DNA from: Bacilli bacterium
GTDB lineage: Bacteria > Bacillota_I > Bacilli_A > RF39 > UBA660
Assembly (NCBI GenBank): GCA_017397685.1
Contig: JAFQID010000030.1
Location: 1-57,091 of the forward strand
Length of the DNA: 57,091 bases
Reading direction: 5' to 3'
The position numbers and the translations under genes are program-made. Numbering within the stretch: position 1 is the stretch's first letter; each line of letters begins with the position of its first letter. Positions 15,801-56,853 of the stretch are shown here, one piece after another. A model generated the notes under the pieces. The model was not told the DNA's origin and did no database searches. It saw only the letters and a program-made list of their open reading frames with translations.

Positions 15801-17818
15801 ACAATATCCCTACTATTGGAAAAATATACTCTTGCTTCGACATATTACATCCGGATTTTCAAGGTTTTGATTTTGATAGTTCTACGATTTCTCCTGTATT
15901 AAAAAACTCTTCAACCATGAGCAAAAAAATTATAGTGTTTTCCGATTTAATAAAATCTTCTTTTGGTTCAAATAATAAATCTATAAACTCTTACTTAAAA
16001 AATATTGAAATTGGTTCTAAATTATATGAAAATATCAAAAATGGACACATTAACTTTAATGCACTGAACGAAACTGAACAAAATGAATTATTTACCTTCA
16101 GTAAACACTTAGAAACTTTATATAATAATACTATGAAAGGAAAAAAAGAAAACGGATCATTTATATCTACAGGTAATGTTTTAACTGATATATTTGAATT
16201 ATCAAAAAAACTATCACCTAATGGTACATTAGAATATAATTTAGCTGATAGGGTTATTAGAATGTTCTGCGGATTGGCTGGAATTGATACGTTAGAGCAA
16301 GCAAAAGAATATATTAATAAAAAGATACAAACCGCTAACGAAAGAAATAGACAGGCTTCAAATAAGGAAATTACATTAGAACAAGGAGATTTTATAAAAG
16401 GTATAGGAGATATTACATATTTAAAAAATATTTTACAAAATGGTAGTGTTTCTAAAGAATATTTAGGTTCAAGCGCTAGTAGTGATGCTACTCCACTTGA
16501 TACTGATATATCAATGATTATGAGTTCTGATGGAACAGTGCGAGACAAAATTAATTCAACTGCTGCGAATGACTATGGACCTATATGGCTTGTTTTAAAA
16601 AATGATGATAGATTTATCACCACAAGAAATTACAATGAAACATTAGATATAAAGAGAGATATAACTAAAATGGAAGTTTTTTATACAGGTGTTAGAGGAA
16701 AAGGACATTATGGAATTAGAACAGGTTTTGCTTCTAGCGAAATAAACTATATTGTTATGGAAAACTATAATTTAAAAGTAGGATTAGAAATTGCAATGAA
16801 TGGATTTTATATTCCTGTGGCTAATATGGAAGGTAAAATTGTATTTACTCCAAAAGATTACGATGAATTAAGAGAAAAAATGAGTGGACTATCATATTTT
16901 GATGAAAATAATTATATGTTTTCTGAAAACTTAGTAACTGAAGAAACAGAATATTTTGCATCACTAATTGATCAAAATAATTATGAAGTTCAGAATAAAA
17001 GAAATAAAATATATGATATTTTAAAAAAATCAATTTACGAATTAGGGTTGGTTTTAAAAACTGAAATAGATGGAGATTTAACTGAAGGATTTATTGAAAT
17101 AATTGATACAGGTTCTACTGGAAGACAAACAAATAAACCAGGTGATGGAGATTTTGATTTTATAATGAGATTAGATAAACGTATTCTATCAAATCAATTA
17201 GAAGTTACTAAATTAAAACAAACATTATTAAAAAATCTAAAAAAAGAAAATACTATAGAGTTTACATCAGAAGGAGATTTCAGACTTAAAAATATTCAAA
17301 TTGATAATGAAACAAACGTCGATATAGACATAACATTTATAGCTAAAACTAATAAAATCGCGTATACAACAGATATGGCATTAAAAGATAGACTTAATAC
17401 AATCAAAACAAAAGACCCAGAAAAATATAGATATGTTATAGCAAATATCTTGCTAGCTAAACAAGTATTAAAAGAAGCAAATGTTTATAAACCAAATAGA
17501 GGAGAAAACCCGCAAGGTGGATTAGGTGGTGTTGGAGTTGAAAACTGGATATTACAAAATGGAGGATCATTTATCGATGCTGCTAGAAGTTTTGTTGAAG
17601 CAGCTGATGGTAAAAGCTTTACTGAGTTTCAATCAAACTATCAAATATGGGATTTTGGAGAAAATCATTTTGCGGAAAAACATAATAAATATCCACACGA
17701 TAACTTTGTAGTTAATAATATGAATAAAGAAGGATTTGAAAAAATGTTGCAAATATTAAAAGAATATCTTAGAAATCATCAAATACAACAAGAAGAAACT
17801 GCACATATAAAGATATAA
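12899..17818 (+). CDS. Giant 1639-residue protein with C-terminal nucleotidyltransferase-like domain
   Basis: No signal peptide or membrane segments. Residues about 130-850 hold five or six diverged repeats, each built on (N/Y/H)P.IFL followed by a helical stretch and a YN/FYNR-type turn (near 135, 274, 305, 528, 672 and 815). A middle domain around 1225-1340 contains DYGPIWLVLKNDDRF and GHYGIRTGFASSEINYIV; I do not recognise it. Near the C terminus GSTGR (1405-1409), DFD (1418-1420) and DID (1475-1477) form the metal-binding pattern of polymerase-beta-type nucleotidyltransferases. GGVGVENWILQNGG after it recalls class I CCA-adding or OAS-like enzymes. GAGGT precedes the ATG and TGCTAAAAT lies upstream. 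It faces the type IV secretion cluster tail to tail; an effector or defence role is speculation. Confidence 0.8.
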   Translation: MIEKMTLERFYEIKNSLYQILKHFDEYIQLHKNDENFNQADFHQKTVEKYLKLQSYLLNYDLSDIPFKAWEGFNIVSDSSLPTVDFSKTKANIDFALIDCGENCNFKGCNIRNLNKRSIFYINPNEFDEQTIKDNPSIFLSDSFNNDFKDKYYNNSITIEDLSKLTNEQINEFVDKKGLRKLKSISYQHKNFIKLLGLDKIIQLYNHSKEEYEAIIKLAEINMGNDIEDFIVQNKEFNVADFKNNLFNFFKDKFIKSHMKYIPTDFPQLFIKENSDLFLINANISEEMKKKYFDRNLTIQDVLEYPEIFLNMPIEHFMVNNIALLIKKNYSNNEFQELIQKHRDVFSHLSKKDDFKKLESYFKGENSLDVDFSKAIKNYFIENEMSTEFRTINEGRITYNIPTWLSSMNFKFIEKISDLNDLLQCDYNVVVLNSEQRNILDTLGINNIKKFEKDTGFFSDQRNMGDEKLQIFNNYIKNYIDFKNGSLSYEEFQDNFVKLLDYMRKQRVFKNYLVPYDWIQGDFRNNHPEIFIDINAERELKKSFYSYEITPNFLYNNKKYIPFLIDKNLTNTIDANIKLHTKNSINTFGEIVPKYENFIEEYASRYGNENLLKLISDYGEILSDIEISSLNGEIENKEHIEKALRYSIYNKISHDNKPYYQLCNNSEMILEYPNIFLSDDAPEELKNALYNRNIDTEFILSNPQFVDYLKHIDLNIIFKNMPIKTMNNQSEISTNLINIIEDTFDKEDAFNVMLSYGKYLESIYKINELKTFEYNQNMSDIDLLNGIEKIILKNILDGNIIYDENITEHFKNNNPTLFLKKDTPQNIKSKFYNREFNIYDFNENPELIKIFENTNIACGFPLKYSWIISLFNDSENIEIANYKRLKIITQYSKIQDLNLEKSFKDYVLNSKNNINFEKIEEIADILSSLSLSNSNEIYAFRKELAEQILRSEIPITSFKKIEKIFIKNNIPTIGKIYSCFDILHPDFQGFDFDSSTISPVLKNSSTMSKKIIVFSDLIKSSFGSNNKSINSYLKNIEIGSKLYENIKNGHINFNALNETEQNELFTFSKHLETLYNNTMKGKKENGSFISTGNVLTDIFELSKKLSPNGTLEYNLADRVIRMFCGLAGIDTLEQAKEYINKKIQTANERNRQASNKEITLEQGDFIKGIGDITYLKNILQNGSVSKEYLGSSASSDATPLDTDISMIMSSDGTVRDKINSTAANDYGPIWLVLKNDDRFITTRNYNETLDIKRDITKMEVFYTGVRGKGHYGIRTGFASSEINYIVMENYNLKVGLEIAMNGFYIPVANMEGKIVFTPKDYDELREKMSGLSYFDENNYMFSENLVTEETEYFASLIDQNNYEVQNKRNKIYDILKKSIYELGLVLKTEIDGDLTEGFIEIIDTGSTGRQTNKPGDGDFDFIMRLDKRILSNQLEVTKLKQTLLKNLKKENTIEFTSEGDFRLKNIQIDNETNVDIDITFIAKTNKIAYTTDMALKDRLNTIKTKDPEKYRYVIANILLAKQVLKEANVYKPNRGENPQGGLGGVGVENWILQNGGSFIDAARSFVEAADGKSFTEFQSNYQIWDFGENHFAEKHNKYPHDNFVVNNMNKEGFEKMLQILKEYLRNHQIQQEETAHIKI

Positions 17819-18084
17819 TAACATTTAAGAAAAATTTTAAAAAATTTATAAAAAAAAATTAAATTTACTTCCTTTTTGTTTAATCATTATTTGATACTCA
17901 GGCGGCTCCTCAGCGTTTCATTTTCCTTCAAATAATATTTTTTATCATATATTAAGTATTAATAATACAATATCACAAAGTAAATATCCAAACATTTTTT
18001 ATTTAAAGTTTATGTTAAATTTATTGAATACAAAAATAGTTTTGTTTTTAGATAAATTATTATTTTTAGTTTTTTAAAGAAATT
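17819..18084. other. Intergenic region without a recognised gene
   Basis: About 265 bases between the giant gene and the terminator of the secretion cluster. It is AT-rich except for a short GC patch near 17900 (CAGGCGGCTCC). No ORF, tRNA or convincing promoter is visible. Confidence 0.5.
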
Positions 18085-18121
18085 AAAACCTTTTAATAGT
18101 TTTGTTCTATTAAAAGGTTTT
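18085..18121. terminator. Bidirectional terminator, secretion cluster and giant gene
   Basis: A perfect 15-base stem (18085-18099 with 18107-18121) and a seven-base loop. T runs follow on the plus strand and, less strongly, on the minus strand. It lies just after the virD4 stop and closes both convergent units. Confidence 0.85.
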
Positions 18122-18126
18122 TAAGT

Positions 18127-20370
18127 CTATTCATCTGATCCAAAGAAATCATCAAAGAAATCTTCATCTTTAATATTGTCTTTAACAACTACGCTATCAA
18201 CATCTATGTTTACTTTTGGTTTATCTTGAACGATGTTTTCTTCTTTTTGTTTGTCATCAATGTTAATAACTTCAGGTTTTTGTGGTTGTGGTTTGATAGT
18301 TTCTATCTCTCCACTTAATATTTTTTCTATTTCTTTTTCTAATTCTTTTTCTTTATCTTGATTTAAATTATTTATTTGCTGAATATTTTCTTTTACCATC
18401 TTTTCTATATCGTTATTTTCTTTAGAAGCTTTAGCATCTTCTTTTTCTTTTTGTGCTTTTTCTTCAGCTTCTAATTCAGCAATTTTCTTATCAAGTTCTT
18501 TTACATAATCATCTAAATTAGATATAGCTGGATTCATTCCTCCGCCAAATCCAGGTTGTCCTCCAAATGGGAATGGTGCCATTGGTCTTGCTCCAGGACC
18601 TCCCATCATTCCACCAAATGGTGAGTTTACATTAAGGCCTTGTTCTTCTTTCATTTTATTTACATAGCCTTTTATGTCAAATGTTTGAACTTCGCCTTTT
18701 GGTCTTTTTACATATCCTAACTTATCATATTGTTTACCCCAATCTATTTTAAAGTTAGGTGTTAGATTTACTTTAAATGGATTACTTCTAAATCTTTTTA
18801 TTAGTACTTCAAACATTTTAAAACTTTGTAAATCACTAACTGTTAAAAGTGGTCTTATAGGTGGTTGTGGTTTATCTTTATCTACTTTTTCTGGTTTTTT
18901 ATCTCCACATAATTTACTTATTTCTTCTAGTGCTTTTATTTCAGTACTCATAAGATATACGAAGTTACCACAGTTACCTCTTATAGTATTTGCTACCTCT
19001 TGTCCATAAACTTTATCTAATTGTGAAAAGTTTTGTATAACGAAACTAAATCTAATATTTCTACTTCTAGATGCGGTTATCATTGATTCTACATCTTTTA
19101 GTGCTGGCATATTAGCAAATTCATCTAAGACAAAGTTTGTTCTATATGGTAGTTTTAGATTTGGACATGTTTGTGCTACAGCTATTAGAGCTTCATAAAC
19201 TTGTTTTACGAATATTGTTGCTAGTGCGTGATATGTTGTTTTTTCATCATGTACTTTTAAAAATACTGCTGTTTTTTCTTTTCCTATGTCTCTTATATCG
19301 AAATCAGAATGTGAAAGCATTTCACTTAGGTTTGCTTGTGAAGAGAATATTCTTGTTTTTGTTCTAAAAGTAGACATTATTCCACCCTTAGTATCAGATG
19401 GTGCGTTTATACAAGAAGCTGCAGATATATATGCTGGCGAAAGTTCTCCTTTACTCTTAAAGTATTCTTTTAAATATGTTGATGCGCCTATTCTATCATC
19501 ACCAATTTCAGCCATCATATTTATACTATTTATATTTATTTCTTCTTCTTTAGCATCATCAAATAAGCCTAATGCTAGACCTGTAAAGAAGTTTGATGCT
19601 GTGTTTTCCCAAAATGGTTCTGCTTTGTTATTTGGATCTATTAATATATTACTTGCTAGGTCTTGTAATAGTTCATTTGCTTTATCAGTGTTTCCACTTT
19701 TATAAAGTGCATATGGATAAGTAAATGGATTCCATGCTGATCCTTCATCTGGATCACGGAAGTTTACTATTATTACCTTATATCCTTTATCTTTTAATAG
19801 ATTTCCACACTCTTCATATAGTTCACCTTTTGGATCGGTAACTATCATACTTTCTCCCGCTCTACCTAATATTTTAATTAATGTAAGCATGAAACATTGG
19901 CTTTTACCTGAACCAGATGCTCCCATTATAAGTGAGTGATTTTCTCCATCATCAACCCAAGCGTATTTTCCATCATTTATAACTGGAAAGCCTGCGGCAT
20001 CATATGTATCATCTTTTAGTGTTATTTTTTTTATTTTGTAATCTTTTTTCATGTCTTTTATATCCATGAATTTTGAAAATCCATCTGGTTTTGATTTTTT
20101 TTGTGTTGTTATTCCAAAACCTGATTCTCTTTCAAAAAAGTAAGAAGAACAACTTGCAAATATTGCGAATAAAGATATGAAGTAAAATAGTAGTGTTGGA
20201 AATAAAAATTTTCCTCCAAAAGCTGGAAATGGATTTAATCCTCTAAACTCTTCTTCAACAGCTAAACTATTTAGGTTTAATACTAGTATCGCTATTAGAT
20301 ATAAAAGTACTACACAAAATATTAAAAATATTACTATATCTTTTTTATCCGCTCTAAATTTTAATTTCAT
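18127..20370 (-). CDS. virD4: VirD4/TraG-type type IV coupling ATPase
   Basis: The coupling protein brings substrates to a type IV secretion channel. Two N-terminal membrane helices (about 12-37 and 57-80) precede the ATPase. Walker A GASGSGKS is at about 150-157, followed by VTDPKGELYEE. Walker B is NFVLDEFANMP, and SFVIQNFSQLDKVYG is a conserved family segment. The last 170 residues are an unusual low-complexity tail: a Gly/Pro/Met-rich stretch, then a lysine/glutamate-rich helical stretch ending in DDFFDDFFGSDE, perhaps a substrate or partner interface. The ATG at 20370 has GAGGTG upstream; the GTG at 20379 is within that site. It is last in the cluster. Confidence 0.92.
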   Translation of the reverse strand: MKLKFRADKKDIVIFLIFCVVLLYLIAILVLNLNSLAVEEEFRGLNPFPAFGGKFLFPTLLFYFISLFAIFASCSSYFFERESGFGITTQKKSKPDGFSKFMDIKDMKKDYKIKKITLKDDTYDAAGFPVINDGKYAWVDDGENHSLIMGASGSGKSQCFMLTLIKILGRAGESMIVTDPKGELYEECGNLLKDKGYKVIIVNFRDPDEGSAWNPFTYPYALYKSGNTDKANELLQDLASNILIDPNNKAEPFWENTASNFFTGLALGLFDDAKEEEININSINMMAEIGDDRIGASTYLKEYFKSKGELSPAYISAASCINAPSDTKGGIMSTFRTKTRIFSSQANLSEMLSHSDFDIRDIGKEKTAVFLKVHDEKTTYHALATIFVKQVYEALIAVAQTCPNLKLPYRTNFVLDEFANMPALKDVESMITASRSRNIRFSFVIQNFSQLDKVYGQEVANTIRGNCGNFVYLMSTEIKALEEISKLCGDKKPEKVDKDKPQPPIRPLLTVSDLQSFKMFEVLIKRFRSNPFKVNLTPNFKIDWGKQYDKLGYVKRPKGEVQTFDIKGYVNKMKEEQGLNVNSPFGGMMGGPGARPMAPFPFGGQPGFGGGMNPAISNLDDYVKELDKKIAELEAEEKAQKEKEDAKASKENNDIEKMVKENIQQINNLNQDKEKELEKEIEKILSGEIETIKPQPQKPEVINIDDKQKEENIVQDKPKVNIDVDSVVVKDNIKDEDFFDDFFGSDE

Positions 20371-45939: not shown

Positions 45940-45969
45940 TTGACTTAATTATTTTTTTTATTATATAAT
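45940..45969 (+). promoter_or_regulatory. Promoter of candidate small RNA 2
   Basis: TTGACT (45940-45945), an 18-base T-rich spacer and TATAAT (45964-45969). The predicted start near 45975 falls exactly at the first base of the 5' hairpin. Confidence 0.75.
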
Positions 45970-45974
45970 GTTAT

Positions 45975-46068
45975 TAGCGTAGAGATACGCTACGAAATAC
46001 TTCTACGAATATAACTGTGGTAGTATTTCAACCAAAACCCCCTGAAGGAGCCGAAAGGCTCCATTTTT
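45975..46068 (+). ncRNA. Candidate small RNA 2, whose 3' end serves as an attachment site
   Basis: About 94 bases, no ORF. Hairpin 1: TAGCGTA (45975-45981), GAGA loop, TACGCTA. Hairpin 2: GAAATACT (45994-46001) with AGTATTTC (46022-46029), plus an inner CTAC/GTGG helix. A single-stranded ACCAAAACCCCC stretch follows, then the terminator GGAGCC-GAAA-GGCTCC and a T run. GNRA loops, a compact fold and a strong promoter argue for a real RNA. The CCCCC could bind G-rich ribosome sites, such as those before the GH25 and 895-residue genes. The last 30 bases recur exactly at 56717-56746. Confidence 0.72.
46039..46068. repeat. att core copy A (30-bp direct repeat)
   Basis: Identical over 30 bases to 56717-56746. 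It comprises CCCCTGAAG, the GGAGCC-GAAA-GGCTCC hairpin and ATTTTT. It is the 3' end of candidate small RNA 2 and lies 65 bases from the integrase pseudogene, as expected for attL of element 1. Confidence 0.7.
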
Positions 46069-46108: not shown

Positions 46109-46128
46109 TAGGTACCCAAATAGGTACC
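46109..46128. repeat. Arm-type repeat pair A
   Basis: TAGGTACC occurs twice with a 12-base period (46109-46116 and 46121-46128), between core A and the integrase stop. Its near match TAGATACC appears as pair B at the other end of element 1. Probable arm-binding sites of the integrase N-terminal domain. Confidence 0.55.
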
Positions 46129-46132
46129 TATT

Positions 46133-47248
46133 TTAATTTAGTTTGTCGATAATGTCGATAATTTCATTCATTTTATTTTTAAATAGATGGGAATAAGTAT
46201 TTAATGTCTCATCTATTTTTGTATGCCCTAGATATTTTGCAACTACATTTATACTTGCATTACTATTGATTAGTAATGATGCACAACTATGTCTAAAATC
46301 GTGAATCCTTATTTGCTTAACTCCTGCTAGTTTACAAATTCTATTTTTACGACTTCTAATTCTACCATTAGTAATTGGATCAGTATCTCCAAATACATAC
46401 CACTTATTATTAAATCCATAATGTTTTTCACAAACTTTATATAATTCTTTTAAATCATCAAGTAATACTTTAGGTATAGGAATTTCTCTTATACTAGATT
46501 TTGTTTTAGGTGTAGTTACCATATAAGGTTTATTTTCATCACCTTGAGTAGCAACTATATTTTTATTAACTCTTAAATAACTATTACCAAAATCTATATC
46601 ATTCCAAGTAAGACCTCTTAGTTCACCTCTACGAAGACCACAATAATATAAAGTTTCGTACATTGTTTTATATAAAATATCTTCTTCTACAGATATAAAA
46701 CTTTTAAATTCTTCATAAGTAAAGAATAACATTTCTTTAGGCATTTCATTTGGATTAGTAAAATTAGTCATTTTATTGTAAGTAGTAGTAAAGTTAAAGT
46801 TATACCATTTACTAGCATAGTTTAATAATTCTTTAAAGAATTTAAATAGATGATTTTTATGATTAGTTTAATAACCATAAGTATTAATTTCCTTTTTCCA
46901 TTTTTCAAAATGTTCTATATTAAAATCTTTTAATTTAATATTTTCTAAATTTTTAAAGAACTTTTGTCTATCTCTATAAGTTTTTAAAGTAGTAAATTTA
47001 ACTTTATCTTCTTTATAAGCATAGAACAAAGTGTATAAATCTTTAAATGTCATATTACGATTATTATCAGCTCTTTCTGTATTAAGAGTAAGAAACTCTC
47101 TTTCAGCATTTAAAGCCTCTGTTTTAGTGAAAAACTTCTTTGATTTATATTTTCTTCTTGTTCCATCTAAATTCTTCACATAGTCATAAAATATCCATTT
47201 GCGACCATCTTTTGTCCATTCTGATTTATCTAATAGTTTAACTGCCAT
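46133..47248 (-). pseudogene. Tyrosine integrase interrupted by a nonsense codon
   Basis: Two open segments lie in one frame, separated by a single TAA at 46868-46870. The upstream part (126 residues) has the DNA-arm-binding AP2-like region (KWIFYDYVKNLDGTRRKYKSK) and the SAM-like core-binding domain. The 32 codons after the TAA (NHKNHLFKFFKELLNYASKW) stay open and continue the core-binding domain. The downstream part (212 residues from 46771) is the catalytic domain with GLRRGE, HDFRHS and LGHT. Full length would be 371 residues, normal for Tn916/phage-type integrases. A point mutation fits; an internal restart could yield a catalytic-domain-only protein. Confidence 0.85.
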
Positions 47249-48528: not shown

Positions 48529-51201
48529 ATGGAATACGCGATTCAGCAAAAGATAGATAAACTAAGTAAAATGTACAATTACTTTGAAGGTAAGAAAGCT
48601 ATTAAGGTTATATCTTCAATGACTATAGAAGAAGCAGAAATAGTTTTATCGAATCCAAAAGTACAAGAGATAATATTTAGAATAGATGATGTTGATACTT
48701 TAAGAGAAATTTTTAGAAAGAGTCCTGCATTTTTTCAGGAAGTAATGTTTTCAAATGAGAAAACACAAGACCTACTAATTTCTCCAAAAAAAACTCTTAA
48801 AAGAAAAGAATTAATAACAAACTATAATAATAGAGACTTTGTATTTAGTGAAAAAGAAATTAGAGAACTAGAGGTTTTTCTACATACTATTAAAAGTCCA
48901 AAAATTTATGAACAAATTGTGGATAGTAAATTTTTCCAAAGAATTGTACCAATGTTTTATGAAAAACAAATAAATAAGTCTTTCTTTAGAGGCATGGATG
49001 TTGTTAAATTATTTAATAATATTATTAATGATAAAGAAATATTTAATACTAGAAAACCAAGACGAAAAAATATAATTGAGGTATTCAATAAAGTTAGTAA
49101 TCATATCTTACTATCAGATGATTATCAAACAATTATTAGTGATGGGAAAAGTTTTATTCAATCTAAAAAATGGAAATGTAGAGATGAAGAAAAGATTTAC
49201 ATAGATGATAGAACACTATCTTTACTTACAACTCCAATGTTGGAAGAACTATTAGAATTTGAGAATATAGATAATGAATACATCAAGAACTATCTGAAAA
49301 AAGATATACTACCTAAGATTATTAGAAATAATTACGATTTTAATAAAATATTCTCACATCTTATGACAGGTAATTATAATTGTTTTAATGGTATTGATTA
49401 TATTTACTTTAGTGTAATAATTGAAGAGATTGATAATAATGAAGAATTAAAAGAAAAATTTATAAATTTTATTTATAATATTTTGTGTAATAATCAAAAC
49501 TTTAATTTAGCTGAAGAAGATATGGTTAAAAAAGTACTATATAATAAAATAAAGAATATGGAAATTAAAAAAGAACAATATAAAAGTTTATTCTATTCCC
49601 CAGATGGATTAAAGACAATTTTCTATTTAAAGTTTGGTAAATTATCACGAAGAATGGATTACTTAAATGGTATTTCTTCAAAACAATTAATTTATTTAAA
49701 TATTAAACATATAAATCAAATATTAAATTCCTTAAATATTGAAAATGAAGATGAACTTTCAAATTTATATTCATTTGCAATAAAATTATATATGGTATTT
49801 GGATTAGAAAGAACTTTAAAGATTCTTAAAGGCGATTATGGTCATATTAATAGATATTTCTTTGATAATGTAAGTAATCTTAATGTTAAAAATGTTGAAT
49901 TAATAAAAGAAGGTAAAAAATATATCCCTAAAATATCAAATGAATTTATAAGTTTTATGTTTGCTAATCAAAATGAAAATCATTTTAAAAACATGCTTTC
50001 AGATTCTTCTAGTTTATTAAGTAAAAATTGGAGTTATTTATATAATAACTATGAAGAAATAAAAGAAAAATGTCATGGAGTAATAACTCTTAAAAAACTT
50101 AATGTAATATTAAGAGAATTATCTCCTGAAAGAGACCTTGATGATGTATCACCTAATAATTATAAACTACAAGAAAATGATATTTTAAATGATGTATGTT
50201 TAGGTAATAAGTCAAGAAAGTCAAATCAAGAAGTATATAAAATGGTATTAGATATTTACGAAAAAATGAAACGTAGAACAGAATCTAGTATTCCATATGT
50301 AAAAGGAGAAGCATCTAATGGATATTCATACGAGATGATGAAATTAAATGACCCGATAGCATTTACATTAGGATACAGAGGTAATTGTTGTATAAGAGTT
50401 AATGATATTGCACACAATCATTTATTACATGCAACATTATGTAGAAATGGTAGAATATTATTAATTTTTGATAAACATCATCAATTAGCAGGATTTGTTC
50501 CATTAAAAAGAAATGGTGAATTACTTATAGCTAATAGTATTGAATGTTTGCATAAAGTCAGAAATGAAAGTGCAATAATTGCATTTAAAGAAGCAGTAAG
50601 TTATATTGTTGAAACATCACAAAACAATGAAAAAGATTCAATAAAATTAGTATGTATTGGTCGTGAGGCATATGCAAAACCAAGCGGTACACCATTTCCT
50701 AATGATATACCAACACCAACTATATTTGAAAAGAATGATCCTACTTATGCTCATACTGATCAATATCATAGAACACTAGATATTATATATAAGAAGACTG
50801 CATTAAATATATCTACTATTAAGTATGGTAATCCAACTTGCAGTTATACTGACCCTAGACCACAAATAAATTCTTGTGATTTCAGAAGTGGAAATAATGA
50901 AACTATTGAACAGGCATTAAAAATTATTAATGCAGTAAGATATGAAAATGCAGATATAGAAGAATTAGAAAATTTCACTTTATGTAGAAGATATGGTTTA
51001 GATAAATGTATATATAATGAAGATTGGTATATTGTAACGACATATGATGGTAAAATATATGGTGATTTTCTTAAATTTAATCCTAAAGCTGAAACAGAAT
51101 ATAAAATTGCTTTTGGTGAACTAGTTGGTATGAGTTACGATAATTATAAAGAAAAAAATGGTAAAGAGAAAAAATTAAGTTTACAAAGAAGAAGATATTA
51201 A
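48529..51201 (+). CDS. Unknown 890-residue protein of the island
   Basis: The start ATG 48529 follows GAGGGGG by six bases; earlier in-frame codons are part of the leader. The first 550 residues are helical and asparagine/lysine-rich, without signal peptide or membrane helices. The C-terminal part is more compact: LGYRGNCCIRVNDIAHNHLL, ILLIFDKHHQLAGFVPLKRNG and ANSIE suggest a beta-rich catalytic or GNAT-like domain. PSGTPFPNDIPTPT and DPRPQINSCDF follow. No family recognised. It stands alone with its own promoter in an accessory region, which fits a single-gene defence protein or toxin; this is inference from context. Confidence 0.75.
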   Translation: MEYAIQQKIDKLSKMYNYFEGKKAIKVISSMTIEEAEIVLSNPKVQEIIFRIDDVDTLREIFRKSPAFFQEVMFSNEKTQDLLISPKKTLKRKELITNYNNRDFVFSEKEIRELEVFLHTIKSPKIYEQIVDSKFFQRIVPMFYEKQINKSFFRGMDVVKLFNNIINDKEIFNTRKPRRKNIIEVFNKVSNHILLSDDYQTIISDGKSFIQSKKWKCRDEEKIYIDDRTLSLLTTPMLEELLEFENIDNEYIKNYLKKDILPKIIRNNYDFNKIFSHLMTGNYNCFNGIDYIYFSVIIEEIDNNEELKEKFINFIYNILCNNQNFNLAEEDMVKKVLYNKIKNMEIKKEQYKSLFYSPDGLKTIFYLKFGKLSRRMDYLNGISSKQLIYLNIKHINQILNSLNIENEDELSNLYSFAIKLYMVFGLERTLKILKGDYGHINRYFFDNVSNLNVKNVELIKEGKKYIPKISNEFISFMFANQNENHFKNMLSDSSSLLSKNWSYLYNNYEEIKEKCHGVITLKKLNVILRELSPERDLDDVSPNNYKLQENDILNDVCLGNKSRKSNQEVYKMVLDIYEKMKRRTESSIPYVKGEASNGYSYEMMKLNDPIAFTLGYRGNCCIRVNDIAHNHLLHATLCRNGRILLIFDKHHQLAGFVPLKRNGELLIANSIECLHKVRNESAIIAFKEAVSYIVETSQNNEKDSIKLVCIGREAYAKPSGTPFPNDIPTPTIFEKNDPTYAHTDQYHRTLDIIYKKTALNISTIKYGNPTCSYTDPRPQINSCDFRSGNNETIEQALKIINAVRYENADIEELENFTLCRRYGLDKCIYNEDWYIVTTYDGKIYGDFLKFNPKAETEYKIAFGELVGMSYDNYKEKNGKEKKLSLQRRRY

Positions 51202-51430: not shown

Positions 51431-51451
51431 AGTAGTAAGGAAGTGAATAAA

Positions 51452-54400
51452 GTGAAAAAATTAAAAAAAGTAGATAACTATCAAGATTATATTAATTTGG
51501 CACCAACATCAAATGCAACTGATATAGATGAATATTCTGAAATATTAGATTATAGTTTAGAAAATGAAGATATTCATAATATTGCAATATTTGGAAATTA
51601 TGGTGCCGGTAAAAGTAGTTTTTTGAAAACTTATTTTAAAAATAAGAATAATTATATAAATATAACATTAGGTTCTTATGGAAATAATAACAAAAATCTT
51701 GGAAAAAGAAAAACTCAAGAATATCATCAAACAATTGAAAAAAGTATTTTGCAACAATTATTATATCAAACAGCTCAAGAGAAAGTCCCACAATCAAGGT
51801 TTAAGAGACTTACAAAATATTCAAAATCTGATATGTTTTTTGAAACTTTTATATTTGTTTTGATTACCTTGATTTGTATGTTTGTTTTTATTCCTAATTT
51901 TTTTGAAGGATTTTTTGAACCGTATAATAATATTAGCGAAGTGTTAAAAATTTTAAATTTTAAAATTAAAACAATTAAATTTTATACAAATTATTTTTTT
52001 ACTAGTTCATTATATATGTTAATGTTCACATTTGTCGTTTTTTGTATTTATAAAATTCGTGAGTTTATTAAAGATAATTTCTATATAAGCAAAATAAAAT
52101 ATAAAGATGCTGAAATAGAAATAAACGGAAAGTCAGAGTCAATATTTAACAAATATTTAGATGAGATTATTTATTTTTTTCAATGTTCTGATTATAATGT
52201 AGTTATTTTTGAAGACATTGATAGATTTAATGGAGCTTTGTCAATTATTGAAAAACTAAAAGAATTAAATTATTTATTAAATACATCTTCAAAAATAACG
52301 AGAAAAATAAGCTTCATATATGCGATAAAAGATGATTTTTTTGAAGAAACGACTGAAAGAACAAAGTTTTTTGATAAAACAATTCCTATTATTCCTGTAT
52401 CTTCATTATCAAATTCAAATGAAATTATATGGGACAAATTTAAAAATATTTATGGTGAGACTAAAAATAAAATGTATTATGAAATTGATAAAAAATTTAT
52501 CAATAATATTTCTGTATTTGTAGATGATATGAGGACAATTAATAATATAATGGCTGACTTTGTGCTTTTTAGTGACAAGTTCATTGATAAAGATTTAGAT
52601 AATTGTAAGCTAATGGCAATGATATTTTATAAAAACCTATATCCACAAAAATATTCGCTTATGTTAAAAGGAGAAGGTACATTACCAAATGTTATTCAAA
52701 ATAAAAGTGAAATTGTAAACAAACTTACAAAAAAACTAAAAGAAGATAATGAAAACATACAAAAAGATATTAATGATTTAGAAAAAGAGAACCTATTAAA
52801 TATACTTGAGTTAAAACAAGTTTTAGTAATGAATTTAGTTAGTATTTCTAATGACAAACTTAGCTATCATAAATTAAAATTTAGCAATTCTGAGTGTGAT
52901 ATTTCTGATTTTTTAAAAGAAGATTTTGATATAAGCAAAATAAAAAATACTACTATAACTTTTAGAAATCGTGATTATTCATACCATAAAGAATTTAATG
53001 AAGAAGAAATTTTTGAATCTTTTGGTGGAAAGCAAACATATATAAAAAGACTAGATAATTTAAATTATGATAAGGATGCTAGTATTGAACAAAAACAAAA
53101 AGAAATTTCTTTGATAGAAAAAAATATTAAAAACATAAAGGAAATGTCAATTAAAGAATTAATAGACAAATATGGCATTGATATTATTGCTGATAATTTA
53201 AATGATTTTGAAATGTTCATTTTAAAACGTGGTCTTATTTCTAGCGACTATTATGATTACATTACATTATTTAAAGAAGGAAATTTAACTATTCAAGATA
53301 TGCAGTTTGTAAAAAATGTAAAGAAGGATAGTAAAATGGAAAATTATTCGTATCATTTAGATAATTTAAATGAAGTTGTTAATAGATTGGATATATTTGA
53401 TTATTCATCAGATAGTATATTGAATTTTGATTTGTTTGATTATATATTTGATTTTAAAAATAAAGTGGAGTTAGACATAAAAAATAAAATTTTATTACAA
53501 TTTGAGAATATTACAGATGAAAAACTAGACTTTATAGATAGTTATTTAGCAAACAGTGAATTAAGTATGAATTTTGTAAATAGCCTATTATTAAAGAAAA
53601 ACAATATTTGGGAAAAATGTTATTTAAAAAATAGTAAAAATAGAGACTATATTGATCAATGGGTAAAAATATTTTTAAGTAATTCAAAATTTTTGGTAAA
53701 CACTGATAATACTTTTATTAATTATATTGATTTACATGATAAATTTTATAAATTATTTTCCTCATTAGGCGACAATCATAAAGAAACGTTGATTAAGCAA
53801 AATGTAAGATTTAAAAATATTGATGCAAATTGTACTAAAGATTTTTATGAATTTATATTTAAAAATAATTTATATGAAATTAACGAAAATATGTTGAAAC
53901 TATTATTAGAAAATACTATTGATTCTAGTGAACATTTATCAAATAAGTTTTTAACAATTTTAGAAGATGAAAGATTAAAAATTATGAAACAAAACATATA
54001 TAATAATTTTGATATATATATTGATAATGTTTATAATAATTTAGAGAATCAAAATAATGATGAAAATGTTATATTAAATATACTAAATAATGAAGATATT
54101 AAAGATAATGTTAAAAGTACAATTATTTTTAAGGAAGAGACTAAAATAAAAGACATAAGTAAAATATCTACTGATTATTATGAATGTGTTTTGAATAATA
54201 ATTTAATTGATTATAATTGGAAAAATGTAATATACATGTATAATTATGTAAAAGATATTCCTGAAAAGTTAGCTAATATAATTAATGATATTGATAATAT
54301 ACAGTTCATTAATTTATTGGATAATCAAAATGATTTCTTGGTGGACTTAATAAGTAATAAAGATATTAACTTAAATACTTTAGAAAAAAACATAAATTCT

Positions 54401-55033
54401 TTTGATTGTAAAATATCAAATTTAGAAAATATAGATTTTATATATGAATTTGATAAATTAAAAATAATTATTAATAATAACATTTTAGACTTTACTTTTG
54501 ATAATTTTAATTATATTAAGAACAAATCAATAGACTTATTAGTTTTATTTATTAATACAAATAAAAAATACTATATTGATAATTGTGATGATTTTGATGT
54601 AGAAGATATAGCAAATGAATTGATTGAAAATCTAGCATTAGACGAAGATATTAAGTTAACATTATTTGAAAATGAAGTAATAAAAAATACAATGTTAAAG
54701 ATAGGTTTATTATTTAAACTTGTTTATGATAATAAATATGGTTTAAGAAATGATGAATCTAATAATTTAATTTTTAGTTCTAATTTAGAAAAGAATAGAA
54801 AATATTCTTATTTAAATAAAATTAAAGAAGAAATTGATACTGATATAATTAAAGACTATTTATGTATGATTAATTCTGAATTTGAATTTATAGGTGTTGG
54901 CAAAAATAATTTTTCAATAGATTTTGATCAAAGTTTATATGAAATATTAAAGAAACTTGAATTAGAACGAATCATTTCATCATGTATAATAACTAGAAAA
55001 AATAAAATTATGATATATAATTTAAAAAAATAG
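51452..55033 (+). CDS. YobI-like membrane P-loop NTPase
   Basis: A 1193-residue protein starting at GTG 51452, with AAGGAAGTG upstream; the longer frame from 51419 runs through the leader hairpin and is rejected. INLAPTSNATDIDEYSEIL and the Walker A GNYGAGKSS (48-56) match the YobI family P-loop NTPases (KAP-related). Two membrane helices lie at about 130-155 and 185-205, inserted in the NTPase domain. Walker B is NVVIFEDIDRF. The long helical C-terminal half is asparagine-rich and probably a sensor. YobI of B. subtilis lies in a prophage-like region. KAP-type membrane NTPases are linked to mobile elements and defence. Specific role unknown. Confidence 0.82.
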   Translation: MKKLKKVDNYQDYINLAPTSNATDIDEYSEILDYSLENEDIHNIAIFGNYGAGKSSFLKTYFKNKNNYINITLGSYGNNNKNLGKRKTQEYHQTIEKSILQQLLYQTAQEKVPQSRFKRLTKYSKSDMFFETFIFVLITLICMFVFIPNFFEGFFEPYNNISEVLKILNFKIKTIKFYTNYFFTSSLYMLMFTFVVFCIYKIREFIKDNFYISKIKYKDAEIEINGKSESIFNKYLDEIIYFFQCSDYNVVIFEDIDRFNGALSIIEKLKELNYLLNTSSKITRKISFIYAIKDDFFEETTERTKFFDKTIPIIPVSSLSNSNEIIWDKFKNIYGETKNKMYYEIDKKFINNISVFVDDMRTINNIMADFVLFSDKFIDKDLDNCKLMAMIFYKNLYPQKYSLMLKGEGTLPNVIQNKSEIVNKLTKKLKEDNENIQKDINDLEKENLLNILELKQVLVMNLVSISNDKLSYHKLKFSNSECDISDFLKEDFDISKIKNTTITFRNRDYSYHKEFNEEEIFESFGGKQTYIKRLDNLNYDKDASIEQKQKEISLIEKNIKNIKEMSIKELIDKYGIDIIADNLNDFEMFILKRGLISSDYYDYITLFKEGNLTIQDMQFVKNVKKDSKMENYSYHLDNLNEVVNRLDIFDYSSDSILNFDLFDYIFDFKNKVELDIKNKILLQFENITDEKLDFIDSYLANSELSMNFVNSLLLKKNNIWEKCYLKNSKNRDYIDQWVKIFLSNSKFLVNTDNTFINYIDLHDKFYKLFSSLGDNHKETLIKQNVRFKNIDANCTKDFYEFIFKNNLYEINENMLKLLLENTIDSSEHLSNKFLTILEDERLKIMKQNIYNNFDIYIDNVYNNLENQNNDENVILNILNNEDIKDNVKSTIIFKEETKIKDISKISTDYYECVLNNNLIDYNWKNVIYMYNYVKDIPEKLANIINDIDNIQFINLLDNQNDFLVDLISNKDINLNTLEKNINSFDCKISNLENIDFIYEFDKLKIIINNNILDFTFDNFNYIKNKSIDLLVLFINTNKKYYIDNCDDFDVEDIANELIENLALDEDIKLTLFENEVIKNTMLKIGLLFKLVYDNKYGLRNDESNNLIFSSNLEKNRKYSYLNKIKEEIDTDIIKDYLCMINSEFEFIGVGKNNFSIDFDQSLYEILKKLELERIISSCIITRKNKIMIYNLKK

Positions 55034-55047
55034 TTAAAGATTATTTT

Positions 55048-55072
55048 CTAGATACCAAAACTAGATACCAAA
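55048..55072. repeat. Arm-type repeat pair B
   Basis: CTAGATACCAAA occurs twice with a 13-base period, 15 bases after the YobI-like stop and about 114 bases before core B. It differs by one base from the TAGGTACC of pair A at the opposite end of element 1. Confidence 0.6.
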
Positions 55073-55185: not shown

Positions 55186-55222
55186 CCCCCTGAAGCTAGG
55201 ACGAGAGTCCTAGCATTTTTTG
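55186..55222. repeat. att core copy B (variant) and terminator
   Basis: It begins with the same CCCCCTGAAG as core A and ends with the same CATTTTTTG, but the stem is different: GCTAGGAC (55195-55202), GAGA loop, GTCCTAGC (55207-55214). Loop class and layout are conserved while stem bases changed together, so it is still a terminator. I take it as the shared attachment core between elements 1 and 2. Confidence 0.6.
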
Positions 55223-55272
55223 TTTTGCCCCATAAATAGGGTTTGTGAAGATTGAAGTAGCCCAAAGTGTAA

Positions 55273-55294
55273 TTTTATCTACATTTTATCTACA
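55273..55294. repeat. Arm-type repeat pair C
   Basis: TTTTATCTACA occurs twice in perfect tandem, 51 bases after core B. The same TTATCTAC motif forms pair D at the other end of element 2. Confidence 0.6.
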
Positions 55295-55511
55295 CTTTTT
55301 TGACCTAAATTTTTAAAGCTGAAATCTTGCATACCCTTATAAAACCTAAGAAAGCTAAATATTGAAGCTATTAAAATTTGAAAATCAGTTTTGCTAAGGA
55401 ATTTAAAGACCTTTTCGATAATTTTAAAAATTTAGAGACCTTTATTTACCTGGGTCAAAAGTAAAAAAATTAAATTTATGTTGCCCCTGGAAGTAGCCAA
55501 GACCAAAAATG

Positions 55512-55520
55512 TGGTATAAT
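55512..55520 (+). promoter_or_regulatory. Extended -10 promoter of the NERD gene
   Basis: TGGTATAAT within a 14-base string (AAATGTGGTATAAT) that recurs exactly at 56929-56942 upstream of the next unit. Confidence 0.65.
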
Positions 55521-55536
55521 TAAATTGGTGATATAT

Positions 55537-56541
55537 ATGGGAATTATTGATAACGTTATTGATTCGGCAATAGATGCCTTTAGATTTAAAGATACAATTT
55601 TTTATAAAGAAAATAGTGACCTGCAAGATAGATATGATGCATTAAAAAGATTAAATGATGAATATCCTAATAACGAAGATTTAATAAGAGAATTATTTAT
55701 TATAAAAAAAGGATTAGATGGTGAGAATGAAATAGCCTATCAACTAAAGAAAGCACATATTGGAATGTATGTTTTGCGAGATGTTAAAGTTAAATATGAA
55801 GATCTTACGGCACAGATTGATTATGTTATTATTACTCCAGTTTATATTTATTATGTAGAATGCAAGAATTTGGTTGGAAATATAACGGTTACTGATAAAG
55901 GAGATTTTATAAGAGAAATTACTATTAATGGCAAAAAAATAAAAAAAGGAATGTATTCTCCCCTAAGGCAAGTAGAAGCGCAAAGAGAAGTAATACGTAA
56001 AATTTGGGATAGTAATACCAGTAACTTTAAGAAATTTTTTTCATCTAAAAATTTTGAGTATTATAGAAGAGTTTTAGTAGTGGCGGCTAATCAGGATACT
56101 ATATTAAATACTAACTATGCACCTAAAGATATGAAATATAAGATATTAAGAGCAGATGCATTGGTACGACAAATCGAATACGATTTTAATCACAGAGGAA
56201 ATGATGAAGTTTTAGATTCAAGGAAGTCGATGGAAGAATTAGCGAAATCTTATCTGGATTATTCTTCCAAAGATATAATTGATTATTATGAGTTTTATAA
56301 AAGTAAATATTGCAGTAATATTATTGGAAATGATGAATTGAGGGATAGACTAATTGAATTTAGAAAACAGAGATCAAATGAAAGGGGAGTTCCGGCATAT
56401 TATGTTTTCACTAATGATGAACTTGATAAATTAATAGAAGTTAGACCACAATCAATAGAAGCGTTAAAAAAAGCCAATATATTAACTCCAATAAAAATAA
56501 AAACGCATGGAGAACTAATAATAAATGAGATTAATAGATAA
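55537..56541 (+). CDS. NERD nuclease-like plus HRDC domain protein
   Basis: Residues about 55-170 are a NERD domain: DGENEIAY supplies the first acidic residue, QIDYVIITPVYIYYVECKN the D and the ExK of the PD-(D/E)XK-like core. Residues about 265-330 resemble HRDC: ELRDRLIEFRKQRSNERGVPAYYVFTNDELDKLI ends with a helix-hairpin segment, as in RecQ and UvrD-type helicases. NERD proteins are predicted nucleases; HRDC binds DNA. The ATG 55537 follows GGTGAT; the GTG at 55525 is part of that site. It is the only gene between att cores B and E. A role in defence is inferred from context. Confidence 0.82.
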   Translation: MGIIDNVIDSAIDAFRFKDTIFYKENSDLQDRYDALKRLNDEYPNNEDLIRELFIIKKGLDGENEIAYQLKKAHIGMYVLRDVKVKYEDLTAQIDYVIITPVYIYYVECKNLVGNITVTDKGDFIREITINGKKIKKGMYSPLRQVEAQREVIRKIWDSNTSNFKKFFSSKNFEYYRRVLVVAANQDTILNTNYAPKDMKYKILRADALVRQIEYDFNHRGNDEVLDSRKSMEELAKSYLDYSSKDIIDYYEFYKSKYCSNIIGNDELRDRLIEFRKQRSNERGVPAYYVFTNDELDKLIEVRPQSIEALKKANILTPIKIKTHGELIINEINR

Positions 56542-56588
56542 ATGTTGCCATTTTAATAATTAATTTTGAAGAATTGTTTAAATAAAAA

Positions 56589-56610
56589 TTATCTACACTT
56601 TTATCTACGA
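56589..56610. repeat. Arm-type repeat pair D
   Basis: TTATCTAC occurs twice with a 12-base period (56589 and 56601), about 107 bases before core E. It matches pair C, at the same distance class as pair B has to core B. Confidence 0.55.
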
Positions 56611-56716
56611 ATTTTCTAAATTACAGGATGGTGTAGAGCGTATTTAAAATGGCGATATGCCGTGTTTTAAGGGATTAAAACGGATGGTTAAGTAATCAAA
56701 TTGCCCCTAAAATTTT

Positions 56717-56746
56717 CCCCTGAAGGAGCCGAAAGGCTCCATTTTT
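56717..56746. repeat. att core copy E (30-bp direct repeat)
   Basis: Identical to 46039-46068 over 30 bases, including the GGAGCC-GAAA-GGCTCC terminator. The flanking bases differ from copy A, so the repeat is not part of a longer duplication. Candidate boundary between element 2 and element 3. Confidence 0.7.
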
Positions 56747-56805: not shown

Positions 56806-56853
56806 CTAGATACTGTTTAGATACTGCTTTTTGGTATCTAAAACGGTATCTAA
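56806..56853. repeat. Arm-type repeat cluster F
   Basis: TAGATACTG appears twice with an 11-base period (from 56806), followed by GGTATCTAA twice with a 12-base period (56833 and 56845) in the opposite sense. It starts 59 bases after core E, in the position of pairs A and C relative to their cores. Confidence 0.55.

What the first reader, a model, noticed from the sequence alone, without database searches (positions are those of the whole stretch)
55186..56746. A 1.5-kb integrase-less cassette carrying only a NERD-HRDC gene
Between cores B and E there is exactly one gene plus two arm pairs of the same sequence. Such a minimal unit would have to be mobilised in trans, like a satellite or gene cassette. 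The cargo joins a predicted nuclease domain to a DNA-binding HRDC domain and has its own extended -10 promoter.
Basis: partly seen in the sequence, partly recalled or inferred. Interest (0 to 1): 0.72.

Follow-up and report, generated by a model that had tools for sequence, protein, structure and literature searches.

The report
Integrase-less nuclease cassette in an array
A 1.5-kb stretch carrying one nuclease-like gene is a genuine member of a small family of mobile-looking DNA cassettes that share the same ends, carry different (often antiviral) genes, and have no integration enzyme of their own, so they most likely move by borrowing one.

Summary
Cores B (55187) and E (56717) bracket one NERD-HRDC gene and two TTATCTAC arm pairs; there is no integrase.

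It is not a one-off. In 386 genomes of the host's family the same left end (80-83% identity) occurs in only three others, from three other genera. Two of these (G298, G249) are complete 1.5-1.8-kb cassettes: same arms (spacing 11 left, 12 right), same left and right ends, unrelated cargo (GNAT + peptidase-like; DUF5655 protein of candidate defence family PDC-S18), no integrase. The fourth (G087) carries the same NERD gene at 98.3% nucleotide identity, although its nifJ is only 66% identical. The promoter is part of the shared left end, not of the cargo.

The core is the 3' end (terminator) of a conserved small-RNA-like gene, which serves as attachment site for a large family of integrase-bearing elements and for other short integrase-less units (YhcG nuclease, methyltransferases, RT, EcoRI methylase + GmrSD).

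No integrase element with TTATCTAC arms was found in the window's genome or among 386 genomes, and the neighbouring integrase is broken by a stop codon. Trans mobilisation is therefore inferred, not shown. Nearest known concepts are CIMEs, pseudo-SCC and integron cassettes; I rate it a new variant.

The parts
45940..46068 (+). small-RNA-like gene (TTGACT/TATAAT promoter, two hairpins, AACCAAAACCCCCTGAAG, terminator) whose 3' end is the chromosomal attachment site
   Evidence: conserved in 40 aligned sites from many genera; covarying hairpin, 5 of 6 pairs with two-sided changes; no Rfam family
46039..46068 (+). core A: CCCCTGAAG-stem-CATTTTT, junction of the sRNA gene with the first element
46109..46128 (+). 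left arm pair of the upstream element (TAGGTACC, spacing 12)
46133..47248 (-). tyrosine integrase of the upstream element, interrupted by one in-frame stop (TAA at 46868-46870)
   Evidence: PF00589 and arm-DNA-binding hits; one frame with a single stop; intact 371-aa homologue in G249
51434..55030 (+). cargo of the upstream element: YobI-like NTPase, PADLOC Tmn
   Evidence: Pfam 4e-98, PADLOC Tmn 8e-64
55048..55072 (+). right arm pair of the upstream element (CTAGATACC, spacing 13)
55187..55220 (+). core B, left boundary of the cassette; the stem CTAGGACGAGAGTCCTAG is carried by the cassette
55222..55526 (+). conserved left end of the cassette family (about 80% identical in four genomes)
55275..55293 (+). 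left arm pair TTATCTAC-TTATCTAC, spacing 11
55510..55520 (+). extended -10 promoter TGTGGTATAAT, part of the conserved left end (kept in G298 with different cargo, eroded in G249)
55537..56541 (+). cargo: NERD-HRDC protein, 334 aa
   Evidence: few differences from the 98.3% identical copy, dN/dS about 0.13
56589..56608 (+). right arm pair TTATCTAC-TTATCTAC, spacing 12
56589..56725 (+). conserved right end of the cassette family (83-84% identical in three genomes)
56717..56746 (+). core E, right boundary; its stem belongs to the next element
56807..56853 (+). arm pairs (TAGATACTG direct, then inverted GGTATCTAA) of a third element that runs off the contig

Best explanation
The 1.5-kb unit is a non-autonomous, site-specific integrating cassette. 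Its chassis is a left end (core half with terminator stem, arm pair, about 200 bp, promoter) and a right end (arm pair, about 110 bp, CCCCTGAAG core half). One gene or a short operon is plugged in between the promoter and the right arm pair. Its target is the terminator of a small-RNA-like gene, or the copies of that core at the edges of earlier insertions, so elements accumulate in tandem. A tyrosine integrase of the arm-binding type, supplied in trans by another element, would bind the TTATCTAC arms and cut at the shared CCCCTGAAG core. Insertion leaves the cassette's own hairpin as the new terminator of the sRNA, or of the preceding element, and pushes the old terminator to the far side. 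The cargo here is a predicted NERD-type nuclease fused to an HRDC DNA-binding domain, probably an antiviral or anti-plasmid gene. Shown: boundaries, shared ends, cargo exchange between cassettes, horizontal spread, absence of an integrase, and use of the same site by integrase-bearing elements. Inferred: trans action, the exact crossover position, the defence role.
For: Three complete cassettes plus one partial copy in four genera share ends with the same arm spacing (11 left, 12 right) and the same cargo junctions. Cargo differs: NERD-HRDC; DUF5655/PDC-S18; GNAT + S51-like. The NERD gene is 98.3% identical between window and G087, while the flank next to it is only 80% identical and nifJ 66%: cargo and ends recombine, and the gene moved between genera. 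Arm pairs match at both ends of complete integrase-bearing elements at the same site, for example AGGTAGC in G025, AACTACC in G298 and TATGACTTA in G408, so arms mark the ends of an element. Arm geometry is regular: left arms mostly about 64-95 bp from the core start, right arms 123-153 bp before the next core. Other integrase-less units at the same cores have matching arms at both ends: AGGTAAC twice and TAGATAC once. In G298 one integrase-bearing element and two integrase-less cassettes stand in tandem inside a 318-kb contig. A near-empty site in G426 has a native terminator hairpin resembling the right-hand core of G025, consistent with stem replacement.
Against: No integrase element with TTATCTAC arms was found in the own genome or in 386 family genomes, nor were the cassette ends found in plasmid, phage or viral collections. 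The TTATCTAC type is rare (4 of 386). No excised circle or fresh insertion was seen. The right boundary in G298 is a degenerate core (CCCCTTGAAG). In G087 the right end is missing.
Confidence: 0.66

Rival explanations
1. Classical CIME: a decayed integrative element that lost integrase and transfer genes but kept its att sites, moving only in cis when a neighbouring element sharing the core mobilises the whole composite (accretion).
For: It stands in tandem with an integrase-bearing element that shares the core. The CIME definition and tandem-accretion route are established (PMC5704250), and 15 integrase-less ssrA islands in Dehalococcoides were read this way (PMC3146451).
Against: Independent decay would leave different scars. 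Here three cassettes with unrelated cargo share the same left and right junctions and the same promoter region. The arms differ from those of the neighbouring integrase element, and the neighbouring integrase in the window is broken.
Confidence: 0.22
2. The shared ends are moved by homologous recombination or natural transformation between existing cassettes and arrays; arms and cores are relics.
For: Mosaic of 98% gene and 80% flank in window versus G087, and a replaced right end in G087.
Against: The four cassettes lie next to different elements and different genes; homologous recombination alone needs a resident copy of the ends. Both arm pairs and the spacing are conserved better than the DNA around them.
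Confidence: 0.1
3. Assembly artefact: a repeat-induced chimera in a metagenome-assembled genome.
For: Window and several related contigs end close to a core, as repeats would cause.
Against: The same cassette structure is found mid-contig in independent assemblies, including a 317,805-bp contig.
Confidence: 0.02

Closest known systems
CIME (cis-mobilizable element; PMC5704250) and integrase-less ssrA islands of Dehalococcoides (PMC3146451)
   Same: bounded by attachment sites, no integrase, tandem arrays at an RNA gene next to integrase-bearing elements
   Different: one fixed chassis with interchangeable 1-2-gene cargo and a built-in promoter, and its own arm-pair type distinct from the neighbour; not evidently a separately decayed island
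pseudo-SCC elements of staphylococci (PMC2900268)
   Same: recombinase-less cassette flanked by the site sequence, in tandem with a recombinase-bearing one, proposed to be excised by the recombinase of the neighbour
   Different: serine recombinase without arm sites; the pseudo-SCC read about is 16.5 kb against 1.5 kb
integron gene cassettes
   Same: arrays of one-gene cassettes without a recombinase gene, moved by an enzyme in trans; the core includes a hairpin; variable cargo
   Different: double arm pairs at both ends, cassette carries its own promoter, core conserved as plain sequence rather than as a folded attC; integrase family is the arm-binding type (PF14657/PF00589), not IntI
integrative and mobilizable elements with lambda-type arm-binding tyrosine integrases
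   Same: same target, core and arm geometry
   Different: these carry integrase, replication-type genes and 9-17 kb of DNA
MITE-type non-autonomous transposons
   Same: short, defined ends, enzyme absent, relies on an autonomous relative
   Different: direct arm pairs and site-specific core instead of terminal inverted repeats; carries a gene

Membership tests
CIME | flanked by attL and attR of a known integration site | tested here: met
   cores B and E match the sRNA 3' end core used by integrase-bearing elements
CIME | no integration or transfer genes | tested here: met
   one ORF only
CIME | derived by decay of a larger ICE or IME | tested here: inconclusive
   same junctions in three cassettes argue for one chassis, but an ancient single deletion cannot be excluded
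CIME | mobilised in cis by accretion | not testable with these tools
   needs excision assay or reads
integron gene cassette | attC site folding as a single strand and recognised by IntI | tested here: not met
   core is a plain CCCCTGAAG plus terminator hairpin, with arm pairs; neighbouring integrases carry arm-binding domain and PF00589
integron gene cassette | intI gene and attI platform nearby | tested here: not met
   only a broken arm-binding integrase in the window; PF00589 finds four places in the genome
non-autonomous relative of arm-binding tyrosine-integrase elements | same core and arm geometry at both ends as autonomous elements | tested here: met
non-autonomous relative of arm-binding tyrosine-integrase elements | an autonomous partner with the same arms | tested here: not met
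   no TTATCTAC integrase element in 386 genomes; a similar arm string (TAGATAC) occurs in both integrase-bearing and integrase-less units, though at a different distance and spacing
phage satellite | phage-derived packaging or regulatory genes, or viral-contig relatives | tested here: not met
   single NERD-HRDC gene; no relatives in viral contigs or phages
NERD-HRDC protein family | NERD and HRDC domains above Pfam cut-offs | tested here: met
   62.3 and 47.4 bits against cut-offs 22.1 and 23.8

The most novel reading that the evidence does not exclude
A family of bacteria keeps integron-like arrays behind a small-RNA gene. Miniature cassettes with a fixed chassis, a built-in promoter and interchangeable one- or two-gene cargo, largely defence genes, are inserted and shuffled by arm-specific tyrosine integrases acting in trans. 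Each insertion hands the sRNA a new terminator.
Probability: 0.45. Interest if true: 0.8.

Novelty: new variant of a known kind. Interest (0 to 1): 0.64.

Why it matters
If right, it adds a second, non-integron way for bacteria to keep exchangeable single-gene cassettes, in small-genome Bacilli where the arrays are rich in predicted defence genes. It makes a testable prediction: one integrase acting on foreign cassettes through matching arm pairs. It also gives a simple search key (sRNA core plus arm pairs) for finding new defence genes. And it names a conserved small-RNA-like gene absent from Rfam whose terminator is exchanged at every insertion.

Tried and rejected
Integron: rejected, no IntI or attC-like features. 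Phage satellite: rejected, no viral relatives. tRNA or tmRNA site: none in the window. Known Rfam RNA for the attachment site: none.

Partner integrase in the own genome: the four PF00589 places are two 309-313-aa frames with the size of XerC/XerD (not examined further), the broken window integrase, and C21, which has TTTACCTCTTA arms. Partner integrase in the family: none with TTATCTAC arms. Elements after secA in G161 and G413 have CTATCTACAC arms but no integrase in the stretch read.

A clean empty site in G298's genus was not found; a partial one was found in G025's genus. Most TTATCTAC hits outside the four cassettes lie in what look like coding sequences and are taken as chance.

Full report
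Observation. The window holds three copies of CCCCTGAAG-hairpin-CATTTTT, at 46039, 55187 and 56717, with none in 100 shuffles. Two TTATCTAC pairs lie between the second and third. The only gene there is a 334-aa NERD-HRDC protein. I would place the cassette at about 55187-56725, because the hairpin after each CCCCTGAAG belongs to whatever follows it.

What the core is. In many genomes of the host's family the same core follows a short, conserved, promoter-bearing stretch. Its features are TTGAC...TATAAT, a first hairpin, a covarying second hairpin, the single-stranded AACCAAAACCCCCTGAAG, then a terminator. It matches no Rfam family. This looks like a small-RNA gene whose 3' end is an attachment site. 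166 of 386 family genomes hold at least one such core. Integrase-bearing elements sit at it with the integrase near the left core and matching arm pairs at both ends, for example AGGTAGC in G025, AACTACC in G298 and TATGACTTA in G408. Left arms start mostly 64-95 bp after the core start with spacing 11-12; right arms lie 123-153 bp before the next core. In G025's genus a relative (G426) has the sRNA directly in front of the downstream chromosomal genes. Its native terminator hairpin resembles the right-hand core of G025, consistent with each insertion bringing its own hairpin and pushing the native one to the right.

The cassette family. A scan of 291 family genomes for TTATCTAC pairs gave, besides what look like chance coding hits, the window, G087, G298 and G249. 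A DNA search with the left end in 386 genomes gave the same four and nothing else long. G298 and G249 are complete: left pair with spacing 11, right pair with spacing 12, total 1.8 and 1.5 kb, no integrase. The left ends are 80-91% identical among the four and the right ends 83-84% among three. Alignment shows the left end conserved up to and including an extended -10 promoter and the right end conserved from the first TTATCTAC onwards, with unrelated DNA between. Cargo differs: NERD-HRDC in the window and G087; a 297-aa DUF5655 protein matching candidate defence family PDC-S18 in G249; GNAT plus an S51-like peptidase carrying a stop in G298.

Movement. The NERD gene is 98.3% identical at DNA level between window and G087, although the left flank is 80% and the nifJ genes only 66% identical. 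Differences in the gene are few, with dN/dS about 0.13. The gene has passed between genera recently, together with promoter-proximal DNA, while the ends differ. Other NERD-HRDC homologues (82% identity or less) sit at ordinary loci with no cores or arm pairs, and rarely near an integrase. The cassette is a vehicle, not the gene's only home.

A wider pattern. About eleven complete units of 1.3-3.2 kb between successive cores have no integrase. I chose regions partly for short spacing, so this is no estimate of frequency. Cargo includes YhcG/PDC-S02 nuclease, an m5C methyltransferase, EcoRI methylase with GmrSD, a Fic-AAA-RT set, and GNAT pairs; a 3.5-kb unit carries an Eco57I-like enzyme. Two with AGGTAAC arms and one with TAGATAC arms have matching arms at both ends. 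In G298 one integrase-bearing element and two integrase-less cassettes of different arm type stand in a row inside a 318-kb contig. The window's upstream element carries a Tmn-like NTPase. Its integrase is interrupted by a stop, so in this genome it could not help as written.

Mechanism. The simplest account is a non-autonomous element of the arm-binding tyrosine-integrase kind: an integrase supplied by another element binds the arms and exchanges strands in CCCCTGAAG. The missing piece is the partner. No integrase element with TTATCTAC arms was found in the own genome, in the family sample, or in viral, phage or plasmid collections. It may be rare, unsampled or carried on something else. Cis mobilisation by accretion (CIME) is the main rival. 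It explains the tandem, but not why three cassettes with different cargo share the same junctions and promoter region.

Known relatives. CIMEs are defined as elements that lost integration and transfer genes but kept attL and attR (PMC5704250). Fifteen integrase-less islands at ssrA in Dehalococcoides were read so (PMC3146451). [quoted passage not shown] The present cassettes share the principle and differ in the fixed small chassis, the built-in promoter, the paired arms and the swapped cargo. I call it a new variant of a known kind.

Noticed in passing
window 45940-46068 and 40 aligned sites (L012, L048, L052 etc.): A conserved small-RNA-like gene with covarying hairpin and invariant AACC(A)AAACCCCCTGAAG, absent from Rfam, is the attachment site of a large family of elements; its terminator hairpin is supplied by whichever element sits next to it.
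   Followed up: partly
L138 (own genome C49) 16437-18637: Another core in the same genome with GTGTACC arm pair, a DRT-type reverse transcriptase (UG17, PADLOC 5e-113) and a SLATT_5 protein; contig ends before the right boundary.
   Followed up: partly
L153 15015-17079 and L175 3105-5170 (both genome G298): Two integrase-less two-gene cassettes with AGGTAAC arms at both ends and different cargo; the first pair of genes has no Pfam or PADLOC match.
   Followed up: partly
window 46868-46870: The integrase of the upstream element is interrupted by a single in-frame stop; intact homologues exist in related genomes.
   Followed up: yes
window 51434-55030: YobI-like NTPase matching the Tmn defence family, next to an 890-aa protein with no Pfam match above cut-off (48529-51198).
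   Followed up: no
L158 9636-9658 and L159 14807-14829: Arm pairs TATCTACAC directly after secA in two genomes, suggesting a related element family using the secA 3' end.
   Followed up: partly
L166 7186-7430: Two cores only 244 bp apart with no gene between them, perhaps an emptied cassette.
   Followed up: no
L012 7050-9279 (G087): The NERD cassette's right end is replaced by other DNA with a GTATCTAA arm pair, three small genes and an integrase C-terminus cut by the contig end.
   Followed up: partly
L251 6972-8106 (own genome C21): A second arm-type integrase (371 aa) beside a TTTACCTCTTA arm pair just downstream of a GatB-like gene, probably another integrated element.
   Followed up: no
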